This document shows positions 1 to 14,397 of a DNA stretch of 64,000 nucleotides, in pieces (positions within the stretch are counted from its first letter, which is position 1; every line of letters starts with the position of its first letter). The stretch is from Flavonifractor sp. An92 (GTDB lineage Bacteria > Bacillota > Clostridia > Oscillospirales > Oscillospiraceae). The stretch lies in the NCBI RefSeq assembly GCF_002159175.1, contig NZ_NFGZ01000003.1:62001-126000 (forward strand), written 5' to 3'. The translations under genes and the position numbers were made by a program. The notes below the pieces were generated by a model that did no database searches, was not told the DNA's origin, and saw only the letters and a list, made by a program, of their open reading frames with translations.

Positions 1-3000
1 CAGACTGACCTGGTCCAGGCGCTCATCCGGGACCTGGAGGCGCAGAGCCGTCGGGCGCAGACCGAACTGGAGCAGTGGGAACAGAAGCCCGCCTGCCGCA
101 TGGTGAGCGCCGCCATCGCCTTTCTCCAGAGCTGCGAGGGAAGCGATGGCCTCTCCAAAGCGGCGGGCCGTGTGTGCCACGCGCTCATCCTGGAGACGGC
201 CCGCCGCTGTCTGGCGGCGGCTGAGGCAGAGAAGGCAGAGCGGAGCCTGCTGAGCTACGACGACCTGCTCCGCCGCACCCGGGATCTGCTCCGGGACGAC
301 CGGCAGGCCCGCAGTCGTTTCCGCTCCCGCTATCGGGTCCTCTACGTGGACGAGTTCCAGGACACCGACCCGGTACAGGCCCAGATCCTCTTCTACCTCA
401 CCACGCCGGAGGAGGATTTTTCCGCCGACTGGACGAAATGCCACCCCCGTCCGGGGAGCCTCTTTCTGGTGGGGGACCCCAAGCAGTCCATTTATCGCTT
501 CCGGGGGGCAGACCTCAACATCTACAACCAGGTACACCAGCTGTTTGAGGAGGAGCGGGCCCGGAGCGGCGGCTATACCATCGCGGTACTGCGGCAGAAT
601 TTCCGCAGCACCCGGCGCATCTGCACAGATGTGACTGCCACCTTCCGGCCTCTGCTGACCGGGCGGGACGGACAGGCCGCCTTTACCGAGATGGAGGCAG
701 CTGGCGCGGGCGCCGGGCAATCGGACGTGGGTTTTCGCTCTTTTGTGTCGGAAGGGGATGCCCAGTGCGCCGCTCAGATCGCCGCGTTCATCGAACAGGC
801 CGTGCGGGACGGCAAGGCCCGCTTCGGGGACTTCCTGGTGCTCACGCCCCGGCGGAAGGACGCCAATCTGTACCGGGAGGCCCTGTGCCGCCGGGCCATC
901 CCCACCGAGCTGAGCGGGCAGCATTTCCTGGGGGACACCGTCCCCATCCGCCGTGCGGCGGAGTGGTGCGATCTTCTGCTCCACAGCGGGGACGATGTGG
1001 CCCTCTACCAGGTGCTCCACAGCTGCTTCGGCGCGGAGCCGGAGGGGCTCTACGCCCTCCAACAGCAGACCGGCAAGAGCCTGCGGCAGCTGCGCTATGC
1101 CGGAGCGGAAGAGCTGGAAGCCCTGCGCGCCCAGGTCAAGCCGGAGCAGCAGACTTTGCTGGACGCTTTAAAAGTGGTGGAGCGGGTGACCGGCCTGGCC
1201 CGGAGCCTGCCGCCGGTGGCTCTGCTGAAGGAGCTTTTTGGGGGCGACTACGGCCTGTGGCCCGGCGGGACACGGGACGGGGAGGACTATGGCTGGGTGT
1301 GCCAGTACCTGGAGAAGCTGCGCAGCTTGCCCCGGCAGACCTTCCAGAGTGTACTGCGCGCCGCGGTCTCCCTGGCGGAAAGCCAGATGGAGCGGGCGCT
1401 TCCCCTGGACGCCGGAGAGGACCGGGTGCGGGTGATGAACCTCCACAAGGCCAAGGGCCTGGAGAGCCGGATCGTGATCCTGACCAGCTATTCCGTCCGC
1501 CACCGGGCCCCCATGTCCCATATTCAGGAGGGGAAAGGCTGGTTTGCCGCCCGTGAGACCAACTTTTTCCCCGATGGCAGCAGCTGTGCGATCCACGCCA
1601 TGCCGCCGGACTGGGACCGGCTGGAGCAGCTGGAGGAGGCGGCCCATCGGGCGGAGGCGGAGCGGGTGCGCTACGTGGCCGCCACCCGGGCCAAGGAGCT
1701 GCTGCTGGTTTGCCGTCTGCCGAATGGGGCGGACGGAGAGCCCAAAGACACCGATTTCTGGCGGAGCATCCAGGCCCTTCCCTTAAAACGGGAGGATGCC
1801 CCGCTGGGGTGTTCCACCGCGCCGCTTTTTGACCCGGACGGGGTGACGCCCAAGCTGACGGCGGTGTGTCCGGTGCTGCCGGACGGGGCCTGGGACCGGG
1901 CACTGAAAGCGGCGGTCACCGCCCTCCCGCCCAGCGGAGACCTGGCCATCACTCCCAGCGGCCTGGACCACCCGGCCCCGCCTGCGGGCGGGGAGGAGGA
2001 TGGGGCTTCCGCCGCCGAAGCCAGCCTTTCCGCCCCGGAACCCCGGGAGGAAGCGCCCGCTTCGGAAGGACCATTCCACCCCTACGGACCGGACTGGGGC
2101 ACCATCGTCCACCGGACGCTGGAGCTGCTGGTGAACCGTGGGGACTATGGAGAAGAGAGCCGCCTTTCCTGTGCTGCCCGGGCAGTCCGGGAGACCCTCC
2201 CTCCGGAGGTCCCGCTCACGGCGGCACAGCGCCGGTATCTGGCCAATGGGGAGCCCATCGCCCCCGAGGCGCTGGCCGAGGATCTGAGCCGGGCGGCAGC
2301 GGCGGCTACCGCCTTCTTGGACCGGCCCGACAGCCCGCTGCGGGACGTGCTGGGGCGCGGGACGCCCTGGACGGAGCTGCCTTTCTACCTCCATGTGCCC
2401 GACCGGACTGACCCGCTCTATGCGCACATCACCGCCCATCTGAAAATGGGGAGCATCCCGCCGGAGACGCTGGACGTGCAGGGAGTCATCGACCTGGCGG
2501 TCCAGACGCCGGAGGGCTGGCTGGTGGTGGACTACAAGACCGACCGCCTTCGTCCCGGCGAGAGCGAAGCTGCCTACCGGCAGCGGCTGCGGGCGGAGTA
2601 CGCCCCCCAGATCCGGGCCTATACCCTGGTGCTGGAGCGGCTGGGCATGGGCGCGGCGGGGGAGGCCTGGCTGTGCTCCATCCCGCTGGGCGGTGCGCTG
2701 ATTCCGCTGTTTTCCGAGGATGACCCGCCACAGTCCCAAGGGGAGGAACAGAACGACGAAAAGGAGAGAGAACAAGGCATGGGACAGAATACCTCTAACA
2801 TTTGGACGCTGACCGATTTCCCTCAGATGGAGAGCTGGACCAACACCCGGGCCGTAAAGCTGGAGATCTATAAGAACGGCGTACTGGACAAGTGCATGAA
2901 AGCCGACAACTGCAAGGCTAAGGCCACGGCCACCTATCTGCGCACCTTTCAGATGCTGCAGGACTACCTGAAGGAGGAGCCGGACTGGACCAATTGGCTG

Positions 3001-4374
3001 TCCGATTATCTGCTGAGGCAGGGACCCAATTACGCGGTGCGGACGGAAACGGAGATGACCGGCGAACCGAAGCGATACGCGCGGTGGAACAAAGCGCCCT
3101 ATTCCCATCTGCCGGAGCTCTACGTCTATACCAACCTCAATTCCCGCAGAGAGTACACGGAAAAAAGCCCGGCCAGCACATTGGTGGGCCGTATCCATCT
3201 GATGGCCAAGGCACTGAAAGAAAAGCGCCCTGACCTGGAGCTGAAGCTCTATACCGAGACGGTTTCCGGAGCAAATGTGGGGCAGAAGGCCCCTTCCTCC
3301 GGAGCGAATCAGAGCGCCGACGGCGACGAGGAGGGAGACGGGGCGTCCGGGACAGAGAGCTGTGAGCTGGAGTTGAACACCATCCTCTACGGCCCGCCGG
3401 GCACCGGCAAGACCTACCACACCCGCTATTACGCCGTGGCCATCGCCCGGGATGAACCGCTGGAAAAGGTGCTGAAGGAGCCCTATGAGGACATCTGCAA
3501 CGAGTATCAGGCGCTGGAGAAGGATGGTCGGGTGCACATGGTGACCTTCCACCAGTCCTACGGGTACGAGGAGTTTGTGCAGGGCATCCGCCCGGTGATG
3601 GAGGGGGAGAAGGGCGACAGCGGCGAGCTGCGCTATGAGGTCCGCAGCGGCAGCTTTGTGGCGTTCTGCAATCAGGCGCGGGAGCACCAGGAGCAGCACT
3701 ACATCTTCATCATCGACGAGATCAACCGGGGCAATATCTCCCGGATCTTCGGCGAGCTCATTACCCTCATCGAGAAGTCCAAGCGGGAGGGAGGCTCTGA
3801 GCCTCTGAAGGTCCATCTGCCCTATAATAACGAAACCTTCTGTGTGCCGGCAAACGTGTACCTTCTGGGCACTATGAACACGGCGGACCGCTCTCTGGCG
3901 CTGCTGGATACAGCGCTGCGTCGCCGCTTTGCCTTCCGGTTCATGGCCCCGGACCCCACCTGTCTGCGTGGGATGGAGGTGCAGGACGCCAAGGGGGAGA
4001 AGCTGGAGCTGGATGAACTGCTTGAGAAGCTCAACGAGCGCCTGGAGCTGGCCCTGGACCGGGAACACACCCTGGGCCACGCCTATTTCCTCGATGTACA
4101 GACCATGGACATGCTGGCCGACGTGATGGAGCAGAAGGTGATCCCTCTGCTGCAGGAGTTCTTCTATGAGGAAGACTCGATGCTGGCGTGGGTCCTGGGC
4201 AAGCAGATCATCCGGGCAAAACCGGCCAACAGCAGGCTGGCGCAGAGCATACCGGGCCGCCGGAGCAGCCAGACGCCCTTGCTCTATACCGTGGACCGGG
4301 CAGCCCTGCGGCGGGTGAGCGCTTACCAGTCGATTCTGGGAAAGGCCGATCCGGAGAGCAGCGCAGATGAGTAA
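1..4374 (+). CDS. AddA/RecB-type helicase-nuclease fused in frame to McrB (5' end outside window)
   Basis: The frame is open from base 1, so the N-terminus, including the helicase P-loop, lies outside the window; 1457 residues are visible. Residues about 115-570 carry UvrD-family helicase motifs: DEFQDTD, LVGDPKQSIYR, QNFRST and, near 559, VAATRAKELL. Residues about 700-875 form a RecB-family nuclease (GTIVHRTLE, GVIDL, VVDYKTDR, then QIRAY). A charged linker at about 905-926 leads to a McrB module that begins at an in-frame ATG (base 2779). It has Walker A GPPGTGKT at 1131-1138, Walker B FIIDE at 1236-1240 and the McrB hallmark MNTADRS at 1292-1298. McrB is the GTP-driven motor of the McrBC type IV restriction system, and its N-terminal part here is a specificity domain I do not recognise. 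AddA-type enzymes resect DNA ends. There is no stop codon between the two halves. Alternative: two genes with a lost stop or a sequencing error. Domain calls are firm; a single polypeptide is inferred. Confidence 0.85.
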   Translation, partial: QTDLVQALIRDLEAQSRRAQTELEQWEQKPACRMVSAAIAFLQSCEGSDGLSKAAGRVCHALILETARRCLAAAEAEKAERSLLSYDDLLRRTRDLLRDDRQARSRFRSRYRVLYVDEFQDTDPVQAQILFYLTTPEEDFSADWTKCHPRPGSLFLVGDPKQSIYRFRGADLNIYNQVHQLFEEERARSGGYTIAVLRQNFRSTRRICTDVTATFRPLLTGRDGQAAFTEMEAAGAGAGQSDVGFRSFVSEGDAQCAAQIAAFIEQAVRDGKARFGDFLVLTPRRKDANLYREALCRRAIPTELSGQHFLGDTVPIRRAAEWCDLLLHSGDDVALYQVLHSCFGAEPEGLYALQQQTGKSLRQLRYAGAEELEALRAQVKPEQQTLLDALKVVERVTGLARSLPPVALLKELFGGDYGLWPGGTRDGEDYGWVCQYLEKLRSLPRQTFQSVLRAAVSLAESQMERALPLDAGEDRVRVMNLHKAKGLESRIVILTSYSVRHRAPMSHIQEGKGWFAARETNFFPDGSSCAIHAMPPDWDRLEQLEEAAHRAEAERVRYVAATRAKELLLVCRLPNGADGEPKDTDFWRSIQALPLKREDAPLGCSTAPLFDPDGVTPKLTAVCPVLPDGAWDRALKAAVTALPPSGDLAITPSGLDHPAPPAGGEEDGASAAEASLSAPEPREEAPASEGPFHPYGPDWGTIVHRTLELLVNRGDYGEESRLSCAARAVRETLPPEVPLTAAQRRYLANGEPIAPEALAEDLSRAAAAATAFLDRPDSPLRDVLGRGTPWTELPFYLHVPDRTDPLYAHITAHLKMGSIPPETLDVQGVIDLAVQTPEGWLVVDYKTDRLRPGESEAAYRQRLRAEYAPQIRAYTLVLERLGMGAAGEAWLCSIPLGGALIPLFSEDDPPQSQGEEQNDEKEREQGMGQNTSNIWTLTDFPQMESWTNTRAVKLEIYKNGVLDKCMKADNCKAKATATYLRTFQMLQDYLKEEPDWTNWLSDYLLRQGPNYAVRTETEMTGEPKRYARWNKAPYSHLPELYVYTNLNSRREYTEKSPASTLVGRIHLMAKALKEKRPDLELKLYTETVSGANVGQKAPSSGANQSADGDEEGDGASGTESCELELNTILYGPPGTGKTYHTRYYAVAIARDEPLEKVLKEPYEDICNEYQALEKDGRVHMVTFHQSYGYEEFVQGIRPVMEGEKGDSGELRYEVRSGSFVAFCNQAREHQEQHYIFIIDEINRGNISRIFGELITLIEKSKREGGSEPLKVHLPYNNETFCVPANVYLLGTMNTADRSLALLDTALRRRFAFRFMAPDPTCLRGMEVQDAKGEKLELDELLEKLNERLELALDREHTLGHAYFLDVQTMDMLADVMEQKVIPLLQEFFYEEDSMLAWVLGKQIIRAKPANSRLAQSIPGRRSSQTPLLYTVDRAALRRVSAYQSILGKADPESSADE
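2761..2781 (+). promoter_or_regulatory. Internal ribosome binding site and ATG for a free-standing McrB
   Basis: AAGGAG at 2761-2766 lies 12 bases upstream of an ATG at 2779, exactly where homology to the helicase-nuclease ends and McrB-type sequence begins. This would allow a separate McrB of about 531 residues as well as the fused product. The spacing is longer than ideal, so initiation strength is uncertain. Confidence 0.5.
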
Positions 4375-5671
4375 GACCGTCTGTCTGTTGGAGTACGAGC
4401 GCCTCAGCGAGCGGGACAGACGGCTGGAACCAGGGGATTTTTCGGCCATCCAGGCATACATCGGGGACTGCGAGGAGCAGAAGATTCCCTGCGGCCTGAA
4501 AATGGGCTGCCAGAAGGGGGCTCTCTATGTCACCGCTTCCAATTACGTGGGCCTCATTGCCTTTCCCGGGGATTTCAAGCTGGAGATCCTCCCCAAGCTG
4601 CACCTGAGCTGGGAAGGGGAGGATGAGGAGGCGCGACGGGACCGGACCCGGCAGTTTTTCTTCCATATGCTGACCAGCTGCGGGGTGATCCCCTCCCGGC
4701 CCTCCACCCACACGGGACTGGACCGCCGGGAGCAGGATATGCTGGAGTGCTTCTATGACGCCTTTGTGGCGCAGGCCCGCCGCCTGGTGCGGCAGGGCCT
4801 GGCCTCGGGCTACCACCCCCACACCGAAAACCAGCCCTTTTTAAGGGGACGGCTGGAGACAAACGGCCATCTGCGGTACAATCTGGCCCACCGGGAGCGT
4901 TTCTATGTGACCTATGAGGTGTTCGACCAGGACCGGCCGGAGAACCGGCTCCTCAAGACCGCCCTCACACTGGTGGGGCGGCGGACCGGCTCCCTGGAAT
5001 TGAAGCGGCAGGTCCGGGGTCTGCTGGACGACATGGATGCCATTCCGCTCTCCGCCCATCCGGACATCGATTTCCAGCGCTGTACAGGGGAGCGCTCGGT
5101 ACGGCGCTACGACTGCGCCCTGAGCTGGTGCCGCCTCTTCCTCCAGCACGAGAGCTTTACCACCTACTCCGGCGACAACGGGACTCAGGCGGTGCTCTTC
5201 CCCATGGAGCGGATCTTTCAGGACTACGTGGCCGGGGAGCTGGAGCGATGCCTGCCCGCGTGGAGCATCTCCACCCAGGAACACCGCCACCATCTCTTTT
5301 ATCAGGATGGGCAAGGTAAATTCCGCCTGACACCGGACATTGTGGCCCGACACCGTCAGAGCGGCCATGTGGTGGTCATGGACACCAAGTGGAAGAAGCT
5401 GGACCGGACCAAGCAGGGCAACGGGATTGCCCAGGCCGACCTCTACCAGATGTACGCCTATGGCAAGAAGTACCGGGCGTCCCGGATGGTGCTGCTCTAC
5501 CCGGACCCCGGCGAGGAGGGCGTCCGGGAGCTGGACGGCCTGCGCCTTCACAGCGGGACAGAGGAGCGGGAGCCGGTGGAGGTGCTTCTCCGCTTGGTGC
5601 GGCTGGACCGCCTGGAGAAGGAGCTGATCCCCGCCCTGAATACGGAACTGGAAGAGGTCCTTTCTTCCTAA
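4367..5671 (+). CDS. mcrC: McrC, nuclease subunit of the McrBC restriction system
   Basis: A 434-residue protein of the McrC family. McrC binds the McrB hexamer, stimulates its GTPase and carries the DNA-cleaving PD-(D/E)xK nuclease. The visible catalytic core is TPD at 322-324 and DTK at 339-341 in the strand-turn-strand arrangement of this fold, followed by ADLYQMYAY, the conserved helix after the active site. The N-terminal half (about 1-200) is the McrB-binding region in the family. The ATG overlaps the end of the mcrB frame by 8 bases, so translation is coupled and the two make one unit. A strong terminator follows directly. Known McrBC systems cut methylated or otherwise modified DNA, usually of phage or plasmid origin; the target here cannot be read from sequence. 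Confidence 0.92.
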   Translation: MSKTVCLLEYERLSERDRRLEPGDFSAIQAYIGDCEEQKIPCGLKMGCQKGALYVTASNYVGLIAFPGDFKLEILPKLHLSWEGEDEEARRDRTRQFFFHMLTSCGVIPSRPSTHTGLDRREQDMLECFYDAFVAQARRLVRQGLASGYHPHTENQPFLRGRLETNGHLRYNLAHRERFYVTYEVFDQDRPENRLLKTALTLVGRRTGSLELKRQVRGLLDDMDAIPLSAHPDIDFQRCTGERSVRRYDCALSWCRLFLQHESFTTYSGDNGTQAVLFPMERIFQDYVAGELERCLPAWSISTQEHRHHLFYQDGQGKFRLTPDIVARHRQSGHVVVMDTKWKKLDRTKQGNGIAQADLYQMYAYGKKYRASRMVLLYPDPGEEGVRELDGLRLHSGTEEREPVEVLLRLVRLDRLEKELIPALNTELEEVLSS

Positions 5672-5679
5672 AAGAATCA

Positions 5680-5720
5680 ACACGGCCCGGGCAGACAAAC
5701 GTCTGCCCGGGCCGTGTTTT
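5680..5720. terminator. Bidirectional terminator between mcrC and the response regulator gene
   Basis: Perfect 16-bp stem (CACGGCCCGGGCAGAC and its complement) with a 4-base loop and a T run on the right. It sits between two convergent genes and ends within the last bases of the response regulator frame. Confidence 0.9.
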
Positions 5721-6387
5721 AATTCTGGGGCCGGTAGAGGCGGCAGGGCCGCCCGCCGGTGTCGTAATTCACCGTGCTGGCCGCCTCGCCCCGCTTCACC
5801 AGATAGTTGACATAACGGCGCACCGTTACCACCGAGAGACCGGTCTGGCGGGAGACGGCCTCGCTGGTGAGCCCCTCCTTCGGGGCGGAGGCGAGGCACT
5901 GCCGGATGCGCTCCAGCGTGCTCTCCTGCATGCCCTTGGGAGCACCGGTCCCGGCGCTCCCGCCGTGGGCGAAGAGCCGGTCCAGCGCGCCCTGGGTGAC
6001 CGCCTCTCCGGCCATGGCCTCCCGGTGGCGGCAGAAGGTGTCCAGCGCCTGCTGGAAGCGCTCAAAGGTGAAGGGTTTCACCAGATAATCCACCACACCC
6101 AGCTTCAGGAGCTGGTCCACGGTGGACGAGTCGTTGGCGGCGGTGACCATGATGGCGTCCACCGGGATGTCCCGCTCCCGCAGGGCGTGAAGAAGCTCCA
6201 CACCGGTGAAGAGGGGCATGTACACATCCACCACCGCCAGATCGGCGGGGTTCTGCGACAGCCACTCCAGGGCGGACCGCCCGTCGGAAAAGGTCTGCAC
6301 CACCCGGAAGCGGGGGTCTTTTTCGGTAAAGGTGCGGTCCAGCAGGGAGACCATGGGGTCGTCCTCCACGATGACAACGCGGTACAA
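5719..6387 (-). CDS. CitB/DcuR-type response regulator
   Basis: A 222-residue two-component response regulator. The receiver domain (1-120) has the acidic pair D9/D10, phosphoacceptor D54 in VVDVYMP and the conserved lysine in DYLVKPF. The C-terminal part carries a helix-turn-helix (about 165-200), as in CitB, DpiA and DcuR, which control uptake and use of citrate, malate or fumarate. The start chosen is a TTG at 6387, preceded on its strand by AAGGAG 8 bases away. That RBS overlaps the stop codon of the sensor kinase gene, so the pair is translationally coupled. The target genes are not obvious; no dicarboxylate transporter lies in the window. Confidence 0.88.
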   Translation of the reverse strand: MYRVVIVEDDPMVSLLDRTFTEKDPRFRVVQTFSDGRSALEWLSQNPADLAVVDVYMPLFTGVELLHALRERDIPVDAIMVTAANDSSTVDQLLKLGVVDYLVKPFTFERFQQALDTFCRHREAMAGEAVTQGALDRLFAHGGSAGTGAPKGMQESTLERIRQCLASAPKEGLTSEAVSRQTGLSVVTVRRYVNYLVKRGEAASTVNYDTGGRPCRLYRPQN

Positions 6388-13992: not shown

Positions 13993-14397
13993 ATGGCCGA
14001 TCAGAGCACCTTCTATCTGGAGATCATCACCCCCGAGCGGCAGTTCTACATCGGCCCCGCCGAGGCACTGGTCTTTCCGGCGGTGGACGGCGAGATGGGC
14101 GTCTATCCCGGCCATGAGCCGGTGGTCACCGCCATCGAGCCAGGCGAGCTGCGCTACAAGGCCAACGGCCAGTGGGAGCCCGCCGCGGTGGGCTCCGGCT
14201 TTGCCGAGATCAAGCCGGACTACGTCATCCTCCTGGTGGGCTTTGCCGAGCACCCCGAGGAGATCGACCGCAAGCGGGCCGAGGCCGCCAAAGCCCGGGC
14301 CGAGGAGCGCCTGCGCCAGAAGCAGAGCATCCAGGAGTACTACCACTCCAAGGCCGCCCTGGCCCGCGCCATGGCCCGCCTGAAAGCAAAACGCTAA
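13993..14397 (+). CDS. atpC: F1Fo ATP synthase subunit epsilon
   Basis: A 134-residue subunit with an N-terminal beta sandwich (about 1-85, including FPAVDGEMGVYPGHEP) and a C-terminal helical hairpin that in many bacteria inhibits ATP hydrolysis. It begins on the base after the atpD stop codon and ends the operon; a strong terminator follows 19 bases later. Confidence 0.94.
   Translation: MADQSTFYLEIITPERQFYIGPAEALVFPAVDGEMGVYPGHEPVVTAIEPGELRYKANGQWEPAAVGSGFAEIKPDYVILLVGFAEHPEEIDRKRAEAAKARAEERLRQKQSIQEYYHSKAALARAMARLKAKR

What the first reader, a model, noticed from the sequence alone, without database searches (positions are those of the whole stretch)
1..5671. AddA/RecB-type helicase-nuclease joined in frame to McrB, with overlapping McrC
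Sequence shows one stop-free frame from a UvrD-family helicase with a RecB nuclease domain into a McrB GTPase with intact Walker A, Walker B and MNTADRS, followed by McrC. Known McrBC systems pair McrB with McrC and rely on host enzymes to process cut ends. A resection enzyme physically attached to the restriction motor would couple cleavage of modified DNA to its degradation and could be an undescribed type IV restriction variant. The alternative is that the core addA gene lost its stop beside an inserted mcrBC pair.
Basis: partly seen in the sequence, partly recalled or inferred. Interest (0 to 1): 0.72.

Follow-up and report, generated by a model that had tools for sequence, protein, structure and literature searches.

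The report
Accessory helicase-nuclease fused to restriction motor
One long bacterial gene joins a DNA-unwinding and DNA-cutting enzyme to the motor of a restriction system; the join is really in the sequence but was seen in only this genome, so it is an intriguing one-off whose joint function is unproven.

Summary
One stop-free frame of 1,776 codons (contig C23:61044-66374; it ends at window 4374) encodes a complete RecB/AddA-type helicase-nuclease, a 23-residue acidic linker and McrB; mcrC overlaps its end by 8 bases. The helicase part ("AddA2") is not the core addA: canonical addBA lies elsewhere in the genome, and AddA2 has its own AddB-like partner directly upstream. Seven other AddB2-AddA2 loci were found. 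In the six with a visible end, AddA2 stops on its own and no McrB follows in the stretch held, including the closest relative (46% identity). G+C falls from 71% to 55-57% at the junction, and similarity to four same-genus genomes ends 59-62 bases after mcrC. So an mcrBC pair of different origin probably joined an accessory helicase-nuclease cluster (WYL, vWA, MoxR, AAA, ankyrin-like genes). The linker scores coding-like (0 of 42 intergenic leaders score as high), though its reverse strand scores equally well. AddA2 cannot be made without McrB unless the sequence is wrong; internal McrB initiation at 2779 is possible. A separate, unfused McrBC lies upstream of AddB2-AddA2 in Colidextribacter. 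Verdict: real in-frame fusion gene, singleton, new McrBC variant; functional coupling plausible but unshown.

The parts
1..2709 (+). AddA2: RecB/AddA-type SF1 helicase with C-terminal PD-(D/E)XK nuclease; the window holds it from residue 320 on (gene starts 957 bases before window base 1, L004:9044)
2710..2778 (+). In-frame linker FSEDDPPQSQGEEQNDEKEREQG; acidic; about as long as the AddA2 tail of the closest relative; G+C 55%; none of 42 intergenic leaders has as high a codon score, but the reverse strand in the same phase scores as high as the forward one
2779..3336 (+). McrB N-terminal part, 186 aa, no relative found; ATG at 2779 with a Shine-Dalgarno-like AAGGAG about 11 bases away (possible internal start)
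3337..4374 (+). McrB AAA+ GTPase part (Walker A 3391, Walker B 3709, MNTADRS 3874) and stop
4367..5671 (+). mcrC, 434 aa, Pfam McrBC over positions 2-318 of 318; TPD...DTK at 5330 and 5375
5672..5733 (.). Right edge of the genome-specific segment: nucleotide similarity to four same-genus genomes begins at 5730-5733

Best explanation
An mcrBC pair of separate origin became attached to the 3' end of an accessory addB-addA-like gene pair, in frame and without a stop, so the locus makes an AddA2-McrB chimera plus AddB2 and McrC. Shown: gene order, open frame, intact motifs, composition change at the join, standalone AddA2 in relatives. Inferred: McrB still forms its GTP-driven ring and recruits McrC to cut recognised DNA, while the tethered AddA2-AddB2 acts on the new ends, unwinding and degrading them. 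Free McrB from the internal start at 2779 could dilute the bulky fused subunits in mixed rings. The setting (WYL regulator, vWA, MoxR, AAA and ankyrin-like genes at a variable site) fits a defence or conflict locus. The confidence covers the chimera being a main product with some functional tie; the full coupled machine is rated lower in the section on the most novel reading.
For: Open 1,776-codon frame. AddA2 aligns along its length with standalone relatives and reaches their usual end at PLGG..I, then linker, then McrB. Linker codon score 0.005 per codon; the best of 42 intergenic leaders has -0.089, and 0 of 42 reach it. The other two forward frames score -0.51 and -1.36 against 0.025 (another training set). 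Catalytic motifs intact in AddA2, AddB2, McrB and McrC. G+C 70.8% at the AddA2 end, 55.1% linker, 57.2% McrB N-part, 61.8% AAA part, 63.4% McrC. One of four other McrBs scanned carries a large foreign enzyme, HsdM_N + N6_Mtase. McrBC adjoins AddB2-AddA2 in a second lineage.
Against: The fusion is seen in one genome only, so selection on the fused state cannot be measured. The linker score lies near the 5th percentile of in-frame windows of the neighbouring coding parts, and the reverse strand in the same phase scores slightly higher (0.050, 0.053), so the codon signal is not strand-specific. McrBC is near AddB2-AddA2 in 2 of 8 loci and not in the same place or subfamily, so defence-island clustering could explain it. 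The McrB N-part has no recognised fold, so modified-DNA recognition is assumed. No expression, read or structure data.
Confidence: 0.5

Rival explanations
1. Incidental join: two independently working systems. The stop of AddA2 was lost recently, McrB is mainly made from its own start at 2779, and AddA2 merely carries a tolerated extension.
For: In-frame ATG at 2779 with AAGGAG (-8.7 kcal/mol, spacing 11). The linker is about as long as the natural AddA2 tail in two relatives (19 and 16 residues after PLGG..I). Composition break at the junction. Open 69-base leaders are common (25 of 42). No other genome searched has the join.
Against: 13 of 58 other in-frame ATGs inside five ORFs of the cluster have as good a pairing at any spacing, and only 6 of 71 called genes with pairing of -7 or better have spacing of 11 or more (start choice in that caller favoured spacings of 3-14). 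Even so, all AddA2 made would carry McrB.
Confidence: 0.33
2. Sequence or assembly error hides a stop or frameshift; AddA2 and McrB are ordinary neighbouring genes.
For: One genome, one assembly, no reads available. A stop lies in another frame at L004:12721 (window 2721), close to where AddA2 of relatives ends.
Against: The join falls between complete domains, inside a 217 kb contig, and the joined frame scores better than the other two forward frames (0.025 against -0.51 and -1.36), though not better than one reverse frame (0.050).
Confidence: 0.1
3. The McrB ring no longer works as a restriction motor; it serves as an oligomerising, GTP-regulated hub that gates the AddA2-AddB2 helicase-nuclease, with McrC as its activator.
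For: The McrB N-part has no recognised DNA-recognition domain; the cluster carries several other AAA+ genes.
Against: McrC keeps its PD-(D/E)XK-type residues. An N-part without Pfam match is not telling: another McrB scanned (L080) also has about 300 N-terminal residues without one.
Confidence: 0.07

Closest known systems
McrBC type IV restriction (E. coli McrBC; solved relatives 6ut3, 6ut5, 6hz4)
   Same: AAA+ GTPase with Walker A, Walker B and MNTAD (NxxD form), followed by an overlapping McrC (Pfam McrBC); internal initiation in mcrB has a precedent in E. coli McrBS (passage in PMC12707154)
   Different: McrB is joined behind a helicase-nuclease of about 1,220 residues and has an N-part with no recognised domain
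AddAB / RecBCD (canonical addBA of the same genome, L005)
   Same: SF1 helicase plus C-terminal nuclease with an AddB-type nuclease partner in tandem; best solved match is AddA 3u44 (B. subtilis origin recalled)
   Different: AddA2 fails the AddA and RecB equivalog cut-offs (recB 224 bits against 696; addA_Gpos 185 against 707.65) while the core AddA passes addA_Gpos (930); AddB2 reaches only 52 against 486.5 for addB_alphas; absent from same-genus genomes; fused to McrB
CoCoNuT (PMC11090510; passages and sections 6 and 7 read)
   Same: McrBC-type GTPase operons; types II and III are associated with an SF1 helicase and nucleases
   Different: CoCoNuT GTPases all have an NxD motif and a separate UPF1-like helicase; here NxxD and a fused UvrD/RecB-type helicase
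HsdM-McrB fusion (G124, L084:5415-9689)
   Same: McrB AAA part carrying a large foreign enzyme at its N-terminus, followed by mcrC
   Different: The partner is a type I methyltransferase, not a helicase-nuclease
vWA-MoxR conflict systems (PMC7159879, passages read)
   Same: The cluster carries MoxR-type AAA and DUF2201 vWA genes (MoxR label recalled)
   Different: The passages name SF-II helicase partners and an SF-I helicase module with PIN; AddA, RecB, McrB and UvrD do not occur in the main text
AddB-like PD-(D/E)XK protein with inactivated helicase beside CRISPR-like repeats (PMC10910872, passage read)
   Same: An AddB-like nuclease outside the core repair pair
   Different: Associated with a repeat array; McrB does not occur in that text

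Membership tests
McrBC type IV restriction | McrB GTPase: Walker A, Walker B, MNTAD signature | tested here: met
McrBC type IV restriction | McrC partner with PD-(D/E)XK nuclease, adjacent | tested here: met
   Pfam McrBC 4.7e-85; TPD...DTK residues (motif assignment recalled)
McrBC type IV restriction | Known N-terminal DNA-recognition domain (SRA, EVE, YTH, B3 and the like) | tested here: inconclusive
   No Pfam match up to E = 10; structure prediction switched off
McrBC type IV restriction | Cleavage that depends on modified bases and GTP | not testable with these tools
   none
AddAB helicase-nuclease (AddA equivalog) | Score above the curated NCBIfam cut-off for AddA | tested here: not met
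   185.4 against 707.65; positive control, the core AddA, 930.4
AddAB-like (wider RecB/AddA superfamily) | UvrD helicase motifs plus C-terminal RecB-type nuclease motifs | tested here: met
   (motif names recalled)
AddAB-like (wider RecB/AddA superfamily) | AddB-type partner: PDDEXK nuclease, no helicase family match, Fe-S cysteines | tested here: met
   Pfam PDDEXK_1 1.4e-32 and no helicase family; cysteines in ECPYRFYL and ACGTFCPYRELC (Fe-S reading recalled); below every AddB-type NCBIfam cut-off
CoCoNuT | NxD GTPase signature; UPF1-like helicase in types II and III | tested here: not met
   NTAD is NxxD (rule); helicase is UvrD/RecB-type
Gabija | GajB UvrD helicase with GajA partner | tested here: not met
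   GajB profiles match helicase motifs of AddA2 (best 1.9e-28) but match the core AddA better (2.1e-45); no GajA match among eight cluster proteins in PADLOC

The most novel reading that the evidence does not exclude
The gene encodes a single-chain restriction-and-resection machine: a McrB ring carrying its own RecB-type helicase-nuclease arms, partnered by AddB2 and McrC and set in a vWA-MoxR cluster with a WYL regulator, in which cutting and degradation of invading DNA are physically coupled.
Probability: 0.27. Interest if true: 0.65.

Novelty: new variant of a known kind. Interest (0 to 1): 0.42.

Why it matters
If the chain is made and works as one machine, type IV restriction need not rely on the host's AddAB or RecBCD to finish off cut DNA, and phage inhibitors of the host enzyme (known for RecBCD; recalled) would not necessarily disarm it. 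It would also show that the variable N-terminal slot of McrB accepts a whole helicase-nuclease. Even if the join is incidental, the work points to a family of accessory AddB2-AddA2 pairs in relatives of Oscillibacter, Flavonifractor and Colidextribacter that often lies beside vWA-MoxR genes and in two of eight loci beside McrBC.

Tried and rejected
Core addA with a lost stop: rejected, because canonical addB-addA is on C58. Open frame as proof of fusion: uninformative (25 of 42 leaders open), so codon scores were used.

Search for other fusions: genus 10 genomes, family 400, order 394, class 245 (own genome included in each), genus of G216 86, of G189 20, of G346 7 (samples overlap). Only the own genome has AddA2 and McrB in one frame. 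Limits: only the best two candidates per genome were scored, at E 1e-45 to 1e-60. At that threshold AddA2-part matches were in 4 of 400 and 2 of 394. Genome contigs and viral-contig scans with the fused protein found nothing. The A2 scan of genome contigs gave 131 confirmed relatives, 80 kept; the top five are AddB2-AddA2 loci, L119 and L153 were looked at and dropped as distant, and 73, which match a short stretch of the nuclease part, were not examined. The A2 scan of viral contigs found nothing. Plasmids: 264 records match AddA2 and 281 match McrB, none over 80% of the query. G938, G896, G770 and G967 are more distant RecB-like genes and left out of the count of eight; their open frames are 1,067-1,240 aa, so not fused; the wider stretches fetched for them (L076-L079) were not analysed.

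McrB N-part: only the own genome of 300 family (E 1e-5) and of 226 class genomes (E 0.001) matches; none in plasmids, phages or viral contigs.

Literature: eight answered searches, listings only, and passages of PMC11090510 (with sections 6 and 7), PMC7159879, PMC12707154, PMC10910872 and PMC3710099. I saw no report of a RecB/UvrD/AddA-McrB fusion in these. PMC3710099 tabulates a HEPN family (DUF4145-like) that is fused to a UvrD helicase in some proteins and lies in operons with McrB/C. Subscription papers and supplements were not searched.

Full report
Observation. The window is contig C23:62001-126000 of a 3.49 Mb, 60-contig genome. With the upstream DNA (L004; window position = L004 position minus 10,000), the frame runs from an ATG at L004:9044, three bases after the stop of the previous gene, to a stop ending at 14374: 1,776 codons. 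Pfam finds UvrD helicase, UvrD_C and PDDEXK_1, then AAA_5. The helicase motifs, including the P-loop AGAGAGKT upstream of the window, the nuclease motifs GVIDLA, VVDYKTD and PQIRAY, and McrB GPPGTGKT, IIDEINRG and MNTADRS are intact (motif roles recalled). mcrC begins inside the last codons of mcrB.

Not the core enzyme. The same genome has addB and addA on C58. The core AddA passes NCBIfam addA_Gpos (930 bits, cut-off 707.65); the core AddB matches addB_Gpos best but below cut-off (685 of 903.7). The window protein passes no cut-off (addA_Gpos 185; recB 224 of 696). I call it AddA2. Its upstream neighbour (873 aa from the ATG at L004:6419, strong Shine-Dalgarno pairing) is AddB-like: a PDDEXK_1 nuclease without a helicase family match.

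Relatives. L043 runs off its contig inside AddA2. In the other six AddA2 ends with its own stop, 5-19 residues after PLGG..I, and profile searches find no McrB or McrC in the stretch held, except in L090, where a partial mcrB and an mcrC lie upstream of AAA-AddB2-AddA2. The downstream view is short in L174 (707 bases) and L090 (2.3 kb). L174 is the closest relative: AddA2 46% over its length, AddB2 50%, and vWA, MoxR, ankyrin-like and AAA-N-like genes upstream in the same order. Searches of 10 genus, 400 family, 394 order and 245 class genomes, overlapping samples with only the top two candidates scored in the last three, found the fusion only in the window genome.

Origin of the join. G+C is 68.6% in AddA2 (70.8% in its last 633 bases), 55.1% in the linker, 57.2% in the McrB N-part, 61.8% in its AAA part and 63.4% in McrC; the core addA has 69.1%, the window 64.0%. 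Two other genes of the cluster (L004:4121-6382) also have about 62%, so lower G+C is not confined to mcrBC. Of six same-genus genomes that hold the neighbouring kinase gene, four were compared: DNA similarity from the atp operon through the kinase and regulator genes stops at window 5730-5733 in all four, just after mcrC. None of the nine other genus genomes has AddA2-McrB. So the segment is genome-specific, and mcrBC probably has another source than AddA2.

Is the linker translated? A 69-base open stretch is ordinary: 25 of 42 intergenic leaders are open, and simulation gives 0.45-0.54. Its codon score is high for a leader: the best of 42 has -0.089, the linker 0.005. Against this, it is low for coding sequence, near the 5th percentile of in-frame windows, and the reverse strand in the same phase scores slightly higher (0.050 and 0.053). 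The gene calls behind the control are crude (81 genes from 127 kb). The linker may be the native tail of AddA2 with only the stop lost, which tail lengths in relatives allow. An internal start at 2779 has AAGGAG at about 11 bases; pairing as good occurs at 13 of 58 other in-frame ATGs, so it is possible but not marked. E. coli mcrB is known for internal initiation, giving McrBS (passage in PMC12707154), though there the short form lacks the N-domain.

How it probably works. Shown: a gene that, as sequenced, can only give AddA2 with McrB attached. Inferred: McrB and McrC assemble and cut recognised DNA as in E. coli, and AddA2-AddB2 held on the ring resects the ends; free McrB from 2779 would relieve crowding. 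The McrB N-part, the likely specificity element, has no relative found, so the target is unknown. Of four other McrBs scanned, one has HsdM_N plus N6_Mtase in front (G124), one a YgjP-like domain (G189), one an HTH domain and one no known domain, so the slot does take foreign enzymes.

Known work. In the McrBC census (PMC11090510; sections 6 and 7 and passages read) RecB, UvrD and AddA do not occur in the main text. In eight searches no listed paper was seen to describe this fusion. I rate it a new variant of a known kind, from one genome, of moderate interest. The odds are as first drafted; the reverse-strand score weakens the codon argument but not the open frame.

Noticed in passing
G000:C23:48014-58382 (L176:16014-19998 and L004:32-6382): AddB2-AddA2 lies behind a divergent WYL regulator, vWA (DUF2201), MoxR-type AAA, AAA/AAA_lid_6, ankyrin-like and zinc-ribbon genes; different subsets of these recur near AddB2-AddA2 in L174, L041, L042, L088 and L090: possibly an undescribed conflict system.
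   Followed up: partly
L174:7188-8696 and L043:6669-8576: An HD phosphohydrolase gene (HD and HD_assoc in L174; the L043 gene is 47% identical over 295 aa) lies directly upstream of AddB2 in two relatives; no such gene was seen at that place in the window locus.
   Followed up: partly
L084:5415-9689: McrB fused to a type I methyltransferase (HsdM_N + N6_Mtase), followed by mcrC.
   Followed up: partly
G000:C6:75452-77955 (L086:7452-9955): A second, divergent mcrB-mcrC pair in the same genome.
   Followed up: no
L090:3-2128: Partial mcrB and an mcrC of another subfamily upstream of AAA-AddB2-AddA2 in Colidextribacter sp. OB.20, cut by the contig edge.
   Followed up: partly
window 5672-5733: The stretch beside the regulator/kinase genes and the atp operon looks like a variable site: four same-genus genomes lose similarity to the window at the same place.
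   Followed up: partly
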